A DNA stretch of 64,000 bases. It comes from Clavibacter michiganensis. Lineage in GTDB: Bacteria > Actinomycetota > Actinomycetes > Actinomycetales > Microbacteriaceae. The stretch lies in the NCBI RefSeq assembly GCF_021216655.1, contig NZ_CP080437.1, positions 3,100,001-3,164,000 of the forward strand. The letters are read 5' to 3'. Both the position numbers and the translations under genes were made by a program. The notes beneath the pieces are model-generated. The model saw nothing but the letters and a program-made list of their open reading frames with translations. It was not told the origin of the DNA and ran no database searches. The stretch's first letter is position 1. Each line of letters begins with the position of its first letter. Of this stretch, positions 55,139 through 63,377 are shown one piece after another.

Positions 55139-56116
55139 ATGCCGGACACCCCCGCGACCCACCCCGCCCCCGCGTTCACCGCCGCGGACTGGCCCATCGC
55201 CACCTGCCTCCACTCCTTCGCCACCGTCGGTCGTGACGGCACCGCCCTCCACGACGCGGATCCGGCCGTCTGGGACCGCATGTTCGCCGACATCGCGCGC
55301 GAGGGCTTCACCCTCGCCGAGCTCGCCGACAGCCACGTCCGTCCGGCCGACCTCGAGTCCTCCCGCCGCGACGAGCTCGTCGCCATCGCGCGGGCGCACG
55401 GCGTCGGGATCCCCTCGGTGCACCTGCAGCGGCAGAGCGTGATCATGCCGGGCCACGAGGAGGAGAACCTCGCCTATGCGCACCGCACCATCGACGCGAT
55501 CGCCGAGATGGGAATGGAGGTCTTCTCGACCGGGCTGCACCAGCCGTTCAGCGAGGCGCAGCGGAAGGCGCTGTGGTTCTGGACCGCCGAGGGACCCAGA
55601 GACCCCGACGACCCCGAGGTGTGGGACGCCGCCGTCACGCGCCTCCGCGAGCTCGGCCGGCACGCGGCGCAGCTGGGACTCCGGATGGCGCTCGAGATGT
55701 ACGAGGACACCTACCTCGGCACGGCGGACAGCGCGGTGCGGCTCGTGGAGGAGATCGGCCTCGACAACGTGGGGCTCAACCCGGACGTCGCGAACCTCAT
55801 CCGCCTGCACCGCCCGGTCGAGAGCTGGCGCGAGCTGTACGCGAAGACGCTGCCGTACGCCAACTACTGGCACGTGAAGAACTACATGCGCGATGAAGCC
55901 GCCGACGGCAGCTGGGCGACCAGCGTGCCCACCACCATGAAGGCCGGCCTCATCGACTACCGGCAGGTGATCCGCGACGCGGTCGAGCTCGGCTTCGACG
56001 GGATCATCCTCACCGAGCAGTACGGCGGCGACAGCCTCGGCGTCTGCGCGGAGAACCGCGACTACATCCGCACGCTGCTGCCGCAGACGCGCGACGCAGA
56101 GGGAGAGGCACCATGA
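55139..56116 (+). CDS. TIM-barrel sugar isomerase/epimerase-like enzyme
   Basis: The 325-residue AP-endonuclease-2/xylose-isomerase-like protein has metal-ligand candidates Glu in MALEMYEDTYLG, Asp in LNPDVANLIRL, His in NYWHVKNYM and Glu in ILTEQYGGDSLG. The family isomerises, epimerises, dehydrates or decarboxylates sugars and sugar acids. It is the first gene of a two-gene operon, overlapping the dehydrogenase-like gene by ATGA, and its upstream operator is shared with the kinase operon. By analogy with 3-keto-acid chemistry, it may decarboxylate the dehydrogenase product to a tetrulose; a resemblance to 3-oxo-isoapionate decarboxylase (OiaC) is possible but not shown. An iolE assignment is unlikely from sequence. 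Confidence 0.75.
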   Translation: MPDTPATHPAPAFTAADWPIATCLHSFATVGRDGTALHDADPAVWDRMFADIAREGFTLAELADSHVRPADLESSRRDELVAIARAHGVGIPSVHLQRQSVIMPGHEEENLAYAHRTIDAIAEMGMEVFSTGLHQPFSEAQRKALWFWTAEGPRDPDDPEVWDAAVTRLRELGRHAAQLGLRMALEMYEDTYLGTADSAVRLVEEIGLDNVGLNPDVANLIRLHRPVESWRELYAKTLPYANYWHVKNYMRDEAADGSWATSVPTTMKAGLIDYRQVIRDAVELGFDGIILTEQYGGDSLGVCAENRDYIRTLLPQTRDAEGEAP

Positions 56117-57081
56117 CCGACCAGCACAGCACCGCACGCCGCATCGCCATCGTCGGATCCGGGTACATGGGCGGCGGAATCGCGCAGGTGCTCGCGCTCG
56201 CGGGCGCCGAGGTGCGCATCGCCGACATCTCCGAGGAGATCGCCGTCGCGAACCACGCGCGACTGCTGGAGGAGGCGGCGAGGTTCGTCGCCGACGGGCT
56301 GTTCCCCGCCGACGCCGTGGAGCGGATCCGCGCGGCCGTCACGCCCGCCGCGTCCATCGAGGAGGCCGTCGCCGACGCCGACTTCATCGAGGAGGCCGTG
56401 CCGGAGAAGCTCGAGATCAAGCACGCGACCCTGCGGCGGATCTCGGCGGCGGCCCGGCCCGACGCGGTCATCGGATCCAACACCTCGACGATCCTCATCG
56501 GCTCGCTCGCGGAGGCCGTCACGAACCCCGAGCGGTTCCTCGGCGTGCACTTCTCGAACCCGGCGCCGTTCATCCCGGGCGTCGAGCTGATCCCGCACGC
56601 GGGCACCGACGAGTCCGCGATCCAGGCGGCGGAGGCGCTGGTCGCCTCGACCGGCAAGGAGACCGCGCGCGTCACCGACTCCACGGGCTTCGTGCTCAAC
56701 CGCCTGCAGTACGCGCTCTTCCACGAGGCGACGCAGATCGTGGAGGAGGGCATCGCGACCCCCGAGGACATCGACACGATCGTCCGCACGACCTTCGGCT
56801 TCCGCCTGCCGGTGTTCGGTCCGTTCGCGATCGCCGACATGGCCGGCCTCGACGTCTACGCTTTCTGCTACGCGTCGCTCCAGACCCGCTGGCCCGAGCG
56901 GTTCGCGACGCCGGCGTCGCTCCAGGAGCACGTCGACGCGGGCGAGTACGGCACGAAGACCGGATCCGGCTACCTCGACGTGCCCGCCGAGCGCACCGAG
57001 GCGCTCGTCGCGTACCGCAACAAGGCGTACGTGGCGATCAAGGAGCTGATGGACGAGCTGGGGCCGGCGCCGATCGGCTAG
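56113..57081 (+). CDS. 3-hydroxyacyl-CoA dehydrogenase-family oxidoreductase
   Basis: The 322-residue protein has a Rossmann NAD motif (RIAIVGSGYMGGGIAQVL), the DADFIEEAVPEKLEIK segment, SNTSTILIGSLAE and HFSNPAPFIPGVELIPH (catalytic His), and a C-terminal helical domain. These define the 3HCDH family, which also includes L-gulonate 3-dehydrogenase and carnitine dehydrogenase acting on non-CoA 3-hydroxy acids. Here, next to a TIM-barrel enzyme, a sugar-acid 3-dehydrogenase is more likely than beta-oxidation. The ATG overlaps the upstream stop. Confidence 0.8.
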   Translation: MTDQHSTARRIAIVGSGYMGGGIAQVLALAGAEVRIADISEEIAVANHARLLEEAARFVADGLFPADAVERIRAAVTPAASIEEAVADADFIEEAVPEKLEIKHATLRRISAAARPDAVIGSNTSTILIGSLAEAVTNPERFLGVHFSNPAPFIPGVELIPHAGTDESAIQAAEALVASTGKETARVTDSTGFVLNRLQYALFHEATQIVEEGIATPEDIDTIVRTTFGFRLPVFGPFAIADMAGLDVYAFCYASLQTRWPERFATPASLQEHVDAGEYGTKTGSGYLDVPAERTEALVAYRNKAYVAIKELMDELGPAPIG

Positions 57082-57114
57082 CTGCCGCGCGTTACCGGCC
57101 CGCGCGCCCGTGCC

Positions 57115-61591: not shown

Positions 61592-61640
61592 CCGGTCCTC
61601 CTCATGGTGGTGCTGATCGTGCTGATGGCGTCGCCGGGTC

Positions 61641-63377
61641 TCACCGGTCGGCGAGCGCGCGGCCCACGGCCGCGGCGATGAGCGCGAGCGAGATCGCGCC
61701 CGGGTCGGCGGTGCCGACGGAGCGCTCGCCGTGCGACCTCGCGCGTCCGATGCCGGGCTTCATGGCCGCGGTGGCGTCGGCGGCCTCCTGCGCGGCGTCG
61801 CTCGCGGCGGCCCACGCGTCGGCGAGCGGGGCGCCGGATCCGACCCGCTCGGCGAGCGCGTCGGCGAACGGCACGAGCGCATCCACCATGGTCTTGTCGC
61901 CGAGCGTGGCCTTGCCGTGGCCCATGACCGCGTCCCGCGCGGCGCCCACGCCCGCGGCGACGGACTCGGCGGTGACGGGATCCGCTCCCTCGTCGTCGAG
62001 CGCGTCGCCGACCGCCTGGAGTATGAGCCCCCAGAGCGCGCCCGAGGTGCCGCCGCCCTTGTCCGACCACGCGTCGCCCGCGAGCCGGAGGACCGTGCGC
62101 GCGCCGGCGCCCTGCTCCACCGCGGAGGTCGCGCGCTCGGAGGCGGCGCGGGATCCGCGCAGCATGCCGATGCCGTGGTCGCCGTCGCCCGCGACCGCGT
62201 CGAGGCGGCCGAGCTCGTCGGCGTGCTCCGCGACGACCGCGTGCACGGCGTCGAGCGCGGCGGCGATGCGCCCGGCGGCCTCCCGCGACGCGTCGCTCGC
62301 GTCCGGGATCGCGGCGTCGACCTCGTCGTCCTCGCGCGCGTCGACCGGCTGGAGCGCGGATCCGTCGAACGCGCCGCTGCGGAACGCCGGGGTGTCGGCC
62401 GGCGCGGTCCACAGCCGCTCCAGCTCCTCGTCGAGCCAGAGCAGCGTGAGCGACGCGCCCGCCATGTCGAAGCTGGTGCAGAACTCGCCGACCTGCGGAT
62501 CCACGAGCGTGATCCCGGCCTCCTCGAGCAGGTCCGCGACGCGCGTGAACACGACGAAGAGCTCCTCGCTCTTCACCGAGCCGAGGCCGTTGAGCACGGG
62601 CACGACGCGGGCGCCGCGCACCGTCACGCCGTCCGGGATCTCGGCGTCGGCGAGCAGCTGCCGCACGAAGAGCTCGGCCAGGCCGTCGGCGGACGGGATG
62701 TCGGTCTCGTCGATGCCGGGCTCGCCGTGGATCCCGAGCCCGATCGCCATGCGCCCCTCCGGCACGGAGAACAGCGGCTCGTCGGCGCCCGGCAGCGTGC
62801 AGCCCGTGAAGGCGACGCCCATCGAGCGCGTGCGCGCGTTCGCGAGCCGGGCGACGCGCTCGGTGCCGTCGAGGTCGTAGCCCGCGGCGGACGCGCCGCC
62901 CGCGACCTTGAAGACGGTGAGGTCGCCCGCGATGCCGCGGCGCTTCGCCTGCTCGTCGGGCGAGGCGCTGAAGATGTCGTCCGTCACGACGACGGTGCGG
63001 CAGTCGATGCCGTCGCCGCGCACGCGCTCCTGCGCGTCGTCGAAATGCAGCACGTCGCCCGCGTAGTTGCCGTAGAGGAGGAGAGCGCCGCGGCCCTGCT
63101 CGCTCGAGCGGATCACCGACTCGACCTGGTGCGCGGAGGGCGACGCGAAGAGGTTGCCCATCGCGGCGCCATGCGCGAGGCCGGGGCCGACGAGCCCGCC
63201 GAACGCGGGGTAGTGGCCCGAGCCGCCGCCGATGACGACCGCCACCTCGGCCTCCGCCGAGCGGGTCGAGCGGGAGACGCCGCCGTGCACGCGCCGGACC
63301 CATCGCCCATTGGCGCGGACGAAGCCGTCCGTCATGTCGTCCGCGAAGTCAGCGGGGTCGTTCCAGAGCCGGGTCAT
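61641..63377 (-). CDS. Dihydroxyacetone-kinase-type kinase (DhaK-DhaL), likely L-erythrulose kinase
   Basis: The 578-residue protein fuses DhaK and DhaL domains. The covalent-substrate His lies in IGLGIHGEPGIDET; the DhaL ATP-binding DxDxxD-type motif is AVAGDGDHGIGMLRGSRA, with GGGTSGALWG after it. Such fused kinases act on dihydroxyacetone or, as LerK/DerK, on erythrulose; with LerI- and DerI-type isomerases downstream, L-erythrulose is the likely substrate. I start at the ATG at 63377, with AGGAGG upstream; an ATG at 63395 is less likely. The shared operator lies at 63409-63421. Confidence 0.87.
   Translation of the reverse strand: MTRLWNDPADFADDMTDGFVRANGRWVRRVHGGVSRSTRSAEAEVAVVIGGGSGHYPAFGGLVGPGLAHGAAMGNLFASPSAHQVESVIRSSEQGRGALLLYGNYAGDVLHFDDAQERVRGDGIDCRTVVVTDDIFSASPDEQAKRRGIAGDLTVFKVAGGASAAGYDLDGTERVARLANARTRSMGVAFTGCTLPGADEPLFSVPEGRMAIGLGIHGEPGIDETDIPSADGLAELFVRQLLADAEIPDGVTVRGARVVPVLNGLGSVKSEELFVVFTRVADLLEEAGITLVDPQVGEFCTSFDMAGASLTLLWLDEELERLWTAPADTPAFRSGAFDGSALQPVDAREDDEVDAAIPDASDASREAAGRIAAALDAVHAVVAEHADELGRLDAVAGDGDHGIGMLRGSRAASERATSAVEQGAGARTVLRLAGDAWSDKGGGTSGALWGLILQAVGDALDDEGADPVTAESVAAGVGAARDAVMGHGKATLGDKTMVDALVPFADALAERVGSGAPLADAWAAASDAAQEAADATAAMKPGIGRARSHGERSVGTADPGAISLALIAAAVGRALADR

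What the first reader, a model, noticed from the sequence alone, without database searches (positions are those of the whole stretch)
55139..63377. Possible C5 sugar-acid to L-erythrulose route (apionate-like) feeding LerK/LerI/DerI
Known: DAK-, TPI- and RpiB-type enzymes take L-erythrulose to D-erythrose 4-phosphate (LerK, LerI, DerI). Seen: they share an operator with a 3-hydroxyacid-dehydrogenase-like and a TIM-barrel enzyme. Inference: oxidation of a C5 3-hydroxy acid then decarboxylation would give a tetrulose, as with 3-oxo-isoapionate in apiose use. Apiose from plant pectin would suit a plant-associated bacterium, and such a dehydrogenase would be new for this step.
Basis: inference. 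Interest (0 to 1): 0.7.

Follow-up and report, generated by a model that had tools for sequence, protein, structure and literature searches.

The report
Conserved sugar-acid route into L-erythrulose
A plant-associated bacterium carries a small, conserved and co-regulated set of genes that most likely oxidises a five-carbon sugar acid, removes carbon dioxide and feeds the resulting four-carbon sugar into central metabolism, but the exact acid is not known.

Summary
In detail: the TIM barrel (55139-56116) and the 3-hydroxyacyl-CoA-dehydrogenase-type enzyme DH (56113-57081) share the palindrome TCCTATAGGA with the LerK-DerI-LerI-GntR operon. Related genomes extend it. In 80 named loci chosen by the TIM barrel, DH occurs in 72, FCD-GntR in 73, LerK in 69. 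The exact palindrome lies upstream of TIM in 69 of 88 loci and of LerK in 44 of 76; shuffles gave it once in 440 and never in 380. Elsewhere the cassette has an MFS carrier plus SDR, a GntP permease, or a PdxA-family dehydrogenase plus TctCBA, all acid-type carriers. So the acid-to-erythrulose idea is supported; apiose as source is not. L-pentonates from plant ascorbate breakdown fit at least as well. The TIM barrel reaches no curated cut-off; its only close solved relative, 5TNV, carries no functional name. Whether it is a decarboxylase or an erythrulose epimerase is open. The window genome has no TctA or PdxA match and no close MFS or SDR. Real and conserved, biochemically untested.

The parts
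55084..55093 (.). operator copy 1, TCCTATAGGA, 45 bp upstream of the TIM-barrel gene
   Evidence: Sequence; 3 copies in the genome, 0 of the reversed control; exact upstream of TIM in 69 of 88 related loci.
55139..56116 (+). TIM-barrel enzyme (PF01261), role open: 3-keto-acid decarboxylase or erythrulose-type 3-epimerase/isomerase
   Evidence: Pfam 93 bits; no NCBIfam model near its cut-off; 5TNV only close PDB relative; 17 of 18 genomes of the genus have it.
56113..57081 (+). 3-hydroxyacyl-CoA-dehydrogenase-type NAD enzyme, proposed sugar-acid 3-dehydrogenase; overlaps the TIM gene by 4 bp
   Evidence: PF02737+PF00725; below every NCBIfam cut-off listed; match in 72 of 80 TIM loci.
59590..60312 (-). 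FCD-type GntR regulator, proposed reader of TCCTATAGGA
   Evidence: PF00392+PF07729; match in 73 of 80 loci; binding not tested.
60328..61125 (-). LerI-type isomerase (L-erythrulose 1-phosphate to D-erythrulose 4-phosphate, proposed)
   Evidence: PF00121; profile of 13 cassette proteins ranks PDB 11ef, L-erythrulose-1-phosphate isomerase, first at 225 bits, then TPI-named 3s6d 214 and 9quu 194; the window protein alone ranks 11ef tenth; a second TPI gene at C1:966708-967454.
61130..61591 (-). DerI-type RpiB-fold isomerase (D-erythrulose 4-phosphate to D-erythrose 4-phosphate, proposed)
   Evidence: PF02502; TIGR02133 ribose-5-phosphate isomerase 197 bits over cut-off 168; D-erythrulose-4-phosphate isomerase model NF051858 136 bits under cut-off 240.
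61641..63377 (-). LerK-type dihydroxyacetone-kinase-family kinase (a further in-frame ATG lies at 63395)
   Evidence: Dak1+Dak2; 55% identical to the kinase beside the TIM gene in Sinorhizobium meliloti and in G074.
63412..63421 (.). operator copy 2, TCCTATAGGA, 34 bp upstream of LerK
   Evidence: Sequence; exact upstream of LerK in 44 of 76 related loci.

Best explanation
The two halves are one regulon for using a sugar acid, most likely of five carbons. An FCD-GntR protein controls both promoters through TCCTATAGGA. A 3-hydroxy sugar acid enters the cell; the 3HCDH-type enzyme oxidises its C3 hydroxyl with NAD+ to a 3-keto acid; loss of CO2, with the TIM barrel as decarboxylase or as a following ketose 3-epimerase, gives L-erythrulose; LerK, LerI and DerI turn this into D-erythrose 4-phosphate. 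Shown by sequence: genes, shared operator, conserved linkage, exchange of dehydrogenase modules. Inferred: C5 length, 3-oxidation, decarboxylation, L-erythrulose as product, the regulator's identity. Open: which acid, the TIM barrel's step, the carrier in this organism.
For: Conserved linkage: of 80 TIM loci, FCD 73, DH 72, LerK 69, LerI 63, DerI 54. Gene run FCD-TIM-LerK-DerI-DH-SDR-MFS-LerI in G008; LerI-DerI-LerK-FCD facing TIM-DH-GntP in G074. Operator conservation across genera. Module exchange: DH+MFS+SDR without PdxA/TctA in 61 of 88 loci, PdxA+TctA without DH in 10, both in 1. Rhizobial plasmids PdxA-TctCBA-TIM-DAK (L119 by tblastn), Paracoccus TIM-DAK-PdxA-TctCBA. MFS best model D-galactonate transporter, 249 bits under cut-off 395; GntP over its cut-off. 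LerI profile ranks 11ef first. LerK, LerI, DerI chemistry: PMC10733421, passages. Curtobacterium, a genus with many cassette loci, was isolated on L-erythrulose and D-erythrose: PMC12780249, passages; those isolates were not checked for the cassette.
Against: No activity is known for the TIM barrel or DH. The TIM barrel is kept beside PdxA, a family that oxidises and decarboxylates by itself (established knowledge), which argues against it being needed as a decarboxylase. The SDR, with a match in 64 of 80 loci, is unexplained. The window genome has no TctA or PdxA match, no close MFS (best 25%) or SDR (best score 33% identical); its one GntP lies elsewhere. Three of 88 loci have neither dehydrogenase: L096, L106 and L093, which ends just behind TIM. 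DerI is below the D-erythrulose-4-phosphate isomerase cut-off, and LerI alone scores higher to several TPI-named chains than to 11ef.
Confidence: 0.55

Rival explanations
1. L-pentonate reading (a special case of the best explanation): the acid is an L-pentonate such as L-xylonate, L-lyxonate or 2-carboxy-L-pentonate from apoplastic ascorbate breakdown. 3-Oxidation gives a 3-keto-L-pentonate, which loses CO2 to L-erythrulose, as L-gulonate 3-dehydrogenase chemistry leads to L-xylulose.
For: These acids are described for plant ascorbate breakdown: PMC11066805 and PMC6225978, passages. Rabbit L-gulonate 3-dehydrogenase (3ado) and lambda-crystallin are among DH's PDB relatives. Matches to a DUF1537-type kinase (17 of 80 loci) and an L-threonate-dehydrogenase-like protein (15 of 80) lie in the same loci.
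Against: No gene for ascorbate itself was recognised. DH scores better to 3mog and 4om8 than to 3ado. The kinase and threonate-dehydrogenase-like proteins score below model cut-offs (70 of 450, 211 of 350).
Confidence: 0.3
2. Apionate reading (first reader; also a special case): the acid is D-apionate or isoapionate and the TIM barrel is a 3-oxo-isoapionate decarboxylase (OiaC-like) making L-erythrulose.
For: The known apiose route makes L-erythrulose from 3-oxo-isoapionate (recalled, Carter et al. 2018; not held). The conserved core fits that last step.
Against: D-apionate would need an oxidoisomerase, which a 3HCDH-type enzyme is not known to be (recalled); no apiose-specific neighbour recognised; carriers are acid-type. 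OiaC's sequence was not at hand, so its relation to the TIM barrel is untested.
Confidence: 0.15
3. The TIM barrel is a ketose 3-epimerase or isomerase acting on erythrulose or its phosphate (EryC or tagatose-3-epimerase chemistry), and CO2 loss is spontaneous or done by the dehydrogenase module.
For: By fold the listed neighbours after 5TNV are isomerase Art22, D-tagatose, allulose and L-ribulose 3-epimerases, IolE and others, including a ketose 3-epimerase with bound L-erythrulose, 5h1w. E186, D216, H245, E293 and R251, the positions I recall as metal ligands and substrate Arg of that family, are invariant in 9 diverse members. It is kept with PdxA modules.
Against: 14-21% identity to the listed epimerases; NF051856 28 bits of 300; N219 stands where I recall a His in the epimerases. 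A shared fold shows no function.
Confidence: 0.4
4. DH is an ordinary short-chain 3-hydroxyacyl-CoA dehydrogenase that merely lies beside a sugar regulon.
For: Same Pfam domains; best NCBIfam hits are acyl-CoA enzymes.
Against: Scores far below NCBIfam cut-offs (220 of 508, 216 of 427); match in 72 of 80 TIM loci; exchange with PdxA.
Confidence: 0.05

Closest known systems
LerK/LerI/DerI tetritol pathway of Mycolicibacterium smegmatis (Huang et al. 2015, not held, recalled; chemistry seen in PMC10733421, passages)
   Same: DAK-type kinase, TPI-type and RpiB-type isomerases leading to D-erythrose 4-phosphate.
   Different: There the feed is a tetritol dehydrogenase; here a TIM barrel, a 3HCDH-type dehydrogenase and, in relatives, acid carriers take that place.
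Oxidative D-apiose pathway with 3-oxo-isoapionate decarboxylase OiaC (Carter et al. 2018, not held, recalled; mentioned in PMC6302742, passages)
   Same: A C5 keto acid would lose CO2 to L-erythrulose, which goes to LerK/LerI/DerI.
   Different: No apiose-specific partner recognised here; dehydrogenase of the 3HCDH type; acid carriers. Relation of the TIM barrel to OiaC untested.
L-gulonate 3-dehydrogenase / lambda-crystallin
   Same: 3HCDH-fold enzyme oxidising C3 of a sugar acid without CoA (established knowledge).
   Different: Acts on a C6 acid; DH scores lower to 3ado (111 bits) than to 3mog (174) or 4om8 (162).
5TNV, xylose isomerase-like TIM barrel of M. smegmatis
   Same: Only close solved relative of the TIM barrel (E 4e-80, 42-43% identical). 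The TIM protein of G074, which looks very like 5TNV (by eye), sits beside DH, LerK, LerI, DerI.
   Different: No function in the entry title; its own genome context was not read here.
PdxA-TctCBA-TIM-DAK operon of Sinorhizobium meliloti and relatives
   Same: TIM barrel 45-48% identical in the alignment, S. meliloti kinase 55%.
   Different: PdxA-family dehydrogenase and tripartite carrier instead of DH, SDR and MFS; no LerI or DerI match in these stretches.

Membership tests
LerK/LerI/DerI tetrulose-phosphate pathway | Dak1+Dak2 kinase, TPI-type isomerase and RpiB-type isomerase encoded together | tested here: met
   matches to LerK 69, LerI 63, DerI 54 of 80 related loci.
LerK/LerI/DerI tetrulose-phosphate pathway | TPI-type protein is a L-erythrulose-1-phosphate isomerase rather than housekeeping TPI | tested here: inconclusive
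   For: profile best hit 11ef, 225 bits; NCBIfam TPI model 170 of 293; second TPI in genome. Against: the single-sequence search ranks 11ef tenth, 108 bits, behind TPI-named chains up to 141 bits.
LerK/LerI/DerI tetrulose-phosphate pathway | RpiB-type protein is a D-erythrulose-4-phosphate isomerase | tested here: inconclusive
   NF051858 136 bits, cut-off 240; TIGR02133 ribose-5-phosphate isomerase 197, cut-off 168.
LerK/LerI/DerI tetrulose-phosphate pathway | Kinase acts on L-erythrulose | not testable with these tools
   Needs an assay.
OiaC / oxidative apiose pathway | TIM barrel decarboxylates 3-oxo-isoapionate | not testable with these tools
   No assay; OiaC sequence not at hand; no NCBIfam model near its cut-off.
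OiaC / oxidative apiose pathway | Apiose dehydrogenase, apionate lactonase and oxidoisomerase nearby | tested here: inconclusive
   None recognised by eye among called genes of the window, L009 and the loci inspected; no reference sequences to search with.
3-hydroxyacyl-CoA dehydrogenase (beta-oxidation) | 3HCDH_N and 3HCDH domains | tested here: met
   170 and 81 bits.
3-hydroxyacyl-CoA dehydrogenase (beta-oxidation) | Score above a curated cut-off for a CoA enzyme | tested here: not met
   Best 220 of 508, 216 of 427, 188 of 319.
Ketose 3-epimerase (tagatose/allulose 3-epimerase) | Same fold | tested here: met
Ketose 3-epimerase (tagatose/allulose 3-epimerase) | Score above the curated family cut-off | tested here: not met
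   NF051856 D-psicose 3-epimerase 28 bits, cut-off 300.
Ketose 3-epimerase (tagatose/allulose 3-epimerase) | Four metal ligands (positions recalled) | tested here: inconclusive
   E186, D216, H245, E293 invariant in 9 diverse sequences; equivalence to the ligands was not shown by a structure overlay.

The most novel reading that the evidence does not exclude
A previously undescribed catabolic route for L-pentonates in which an aldonate 3-dehydrogenase (3HCDH type in most Actinomycetota loci seen, PdxA type in Alphaproteobacteria and some Actinomycetota) makes a 3-keto-L-pentonate, a 5TNV-family TIM barrel handles it or its product, and CO2 loss gives L-erythrulose for LerK. This would let apoplast- and root-dwelling bacteria live on ascorbate breakdown acids and would give 5TNV a function.
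Probability: 0.27. Interest if true: 0.75.

Novelty: new variant of a known kind. Interest (0 to 1): 0.6.

Why it matters
It gives a sharp, testable assignment for two enzyme groups without known function and one crystal structure without a functional name, found in Actinomycetota and in part in Alphaproteobacteria, with a shared operator in Actinomycetota that ties them to the erythrulose pathway. If the substrate is an ascorbate-derived acid it would point to an overlooked carbon source for bacteria living in plants; if it is apionate or isoapionate, it would give a new dehydrogenase for that route.

Tried and rejected
Rejected: the ABC transporter beyond 64000 as the cassette's carrier. It lies with GntR-UTRA, an IolG-like and a second TIM-barrel gene, and with iolC/J/A/B/D-like genes on the other side would complete an inositol cluster. 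These names are my reading of the sequences; only the UTRA domain was scanned. Rejected: the SDR at 57115 as the cassette SDR; it is 28% identical to it. The other Clavibacter loci inspected, L035, L036 and L038, hold differing genes in this gap, though L036 shares this SDR.

Led nowhere: literature searches on apionate/OiaC/ApnO, 5TNV, LerK, S. meliloti locus tags (guessed from memory), pentonate routes, erythrulose enzymes and PdxA-DAK operons. In the listings and passages I saw, none described this cassette. That is one open-access library only; lists were cut at the number shown. Passages of PMC10176493 and PMC6336799 gave nothing on it. The structure model of DH is weak (mean pLDDT 69, much of 190-290 under 50), so its fold matches are only supportive. 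The neighbours with threonate-type kinase were listed but not resolved.

Counting caveats: one search counts any tblastn hit of 90 bits or more in a locus, so SDR and FCD counts may include paralogues; contig ends cut some loci. One search uses higher thresholds and 88 loci (80 plus L115-L122). In one search the LerK stretch of L094 was mis-cut (its gene runs off the locus); one search repeats the count without it. Ten of the 88 loci are in the PdxA class without DH; five of these are plasmids of related Alphaproteobacteria. In the genus search five of the 17 TIM matches show one TAG inside the matched span; in L037 (that locus read here) it is at residue 321 of 325, so a slightly shorter protein. 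L114 is alike.

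
Full report
What is there. The window is bases 3100001-3164000 of contig C1 of a 3.38 Mb genome. Close named relatives of the TIM barrel belong to Clavibacter (92%; 94-97%), so I call it Clavibacter-like. The genes named in the finding are present as open frames: TIM barrel 55139-56116 and DH 56113-57081 on the + strand, overlapping by 4 bp; FCD-GntR 59590-60312, LerI-type 60328-61125, DerI-type 61130-61591 and LerK-type 61641-63377 on the - strand. Between the halves, 57115-59582, lie other genes.

Operator. GATGCTATTTCCTATAGGATCTTGACC upstream of the TIM gene and CCAATATCCTATAGGATCTCCT upstream of LerK share TCCTATAGGA. 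The genome has three such sites and none of the reversed control. The third is between an NCS1-type permease gene and another FCD-GntR gene whose product is 36% identical to the cassette's regulator over 169 columns, so related regulators may read the same palindrome. In 88 related loci the exact site is upstream of TIM in 69 and one mismatch off in 7; upstream of LerK in 44 of 76 (one of them masked). Shuffled stretches had it in 0 of 440 and 0 of 385 and, on repeat, 1 of 440 and 0 of 380. Upstream of DH, LerI, DerI and MFS it was in 0 of 75, 66, 57 and 62; of FCD in 1 of 76; of PdxA in 2 of 11. The regulon claim is well supported for the Actinomycetota loci; which protein binds is inference.

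Conserved cassette. In these 80, matches to FCD 73, DH 72, LerK 69, cassette SDR 64, LerI 63, MFS 60, DerI 54. In G008 FCD-TIM-LerK-DerI-DH-SDR-MFS-LerI follow on one strand; in G074 LerI-DerI-LerK-FCD face TIM-DH-GntP. In 246 genomes drawn from the phylum, 20 had a TIM match, only three of them strong (E 4e-82 or better, own genome included), so the cassette is patchy. Within the genus 17 of 18 have the TIM gene; of 249 family genomes, 54 have a DH match at E 1e-80 (some may be paralogues).

Exchange of modules. The Actinomycetota loci L094, L098, L100, L102 and L103 have no DH match but a PdxA-family gene with TctC/TctA. The same is so on plasmids of Sinorhizobium, Shinella and Pararhizobium (PdxA-TctCBA-TIM-DAK), of Ensifer (L119, no annotation, by tblastn) and of Paracoccus (TIM-DAK-PdxA-TctCBA). 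Over 88 loci: DH+MFS+SDR 61, PdxA+TctA without DH 10, DH alone 8, DH+SDR 3, none of these 3, DH+GntP 2, DH, SDR, MFS, PdxA and TctA together 1. TIM barrel and, in most loci, the kinase are constant. Both dehydrogenase types belong to families that oxidise a 3-hydroxy acid (established knowledge), and the three carrier types belong to families that carry organic acids (MFS best model D-galactonate transporter, under its cut-off; TctCBA by record names). This is the main reason to think that the compound is an acid oxidised at C3.

The enzymes. LerI: a profile of 13 cassette proteins ranks the solved L-erythrulose-1-phosphate isomerase 11ef first (225 bits; then 3s6d, 214, and 9quu, 194), though the window protein alone does not. 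LerK, LerI and DerI chemistry was read in passages of PMC10733421. DH: below the curated cut-offs for CoA enzymes; S125, H146, E158 and N196, which I recall as the catalytic positions of the family, are invariant. TIM barrel: 5TNV is the only close solved relative, otherwise ketose 3-epimerases, IolE, hydratase and isomerase folds. Its E186, D216, H245, E293 and R251 are invariant also in rhizobial members.

Which acid. Loss of CO2 from a 3-keto-pentonate whose C4 has the L form gives L-erythrulose (chemistry, inference). L-lyxonate, L-xylonate and 2-carboxy-L-pentonate arise from ascorbate under apoplast-like conditions (PMC11066805, passages; related products in PMC6225978, passages). Some loci also hold a DUF1537-type kinase (17 of 80) and an L-threonate-dehydrogenase-like gene (15 of 80). 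Apionate or isoapionate give the same end product and are not excluded. In L111 TIM-DH are followed by what looks like an arabinofuranosidase and an alditol oxidase (my reading), a lead only.

The window's own case. This genome has no TctA or PdxA match, no close MFS or SDR and one GntP elsewhere. The gap between DH and FCD, where many other loci hold SDR and MFS, is filled by differing genes in the Clavibacter loci inspected. So uptake here is unexplained.

Against my reading. No assay exists; the TIM barrel stays with PdxA, which would not need a decarboxylase; the SDR is unexplained; L096 and L106 have neither dehydrogenase; DerI misses its specific cut-off. I therefore put 0.55 on the general route and leave the TIM barrel's step open.

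Noticed in passing
window 47863-54272, and L009 9458-15500 (genome 3163458-3169500): An inositol-type gene cluster appears split around the cassette: iolC/J/A/B/D-like genes on the left, GntR-UTRA, RbsACB-like, IolG-like and a second TIM barrel on the right (my reading). Pseudonocardia locus L106 also has IolG, TIM2, UTRA and iolA matches near the cassette.
   Followed up: partly
L011 1501-1510 (genome C1:2150043-2150052): Third genomic TCCTATAGGA, between an NCS1-type permease gene and a divergent FCD-GntR gene.
   Followed up: partly
L050: One Agrococcus MAG carries both modules, DH-SDR-MFS and PdxA-TctC-TctA, on one strand.
   Followed up: no
L111 11993-14761: Behind TIM-DH lie genes that read like an alpha-L-arabinofuranosidase and an alditol or aldonolactone oxidase, a possible hint to the substrate (names recalled, not scanned).
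   Followed up: no
L116 18947-20335: Behind the Paracoccus cassette lies a DRL-type oxidoreductase with SAF domain, labelled flagellar FlgA in the record.
   Followed up: no
L035, L036, L038 between DH and FCD: Gene content of this gap differs between the Clavibacter loci inspected, as in an insertion hot spot.
   Followed up: partly
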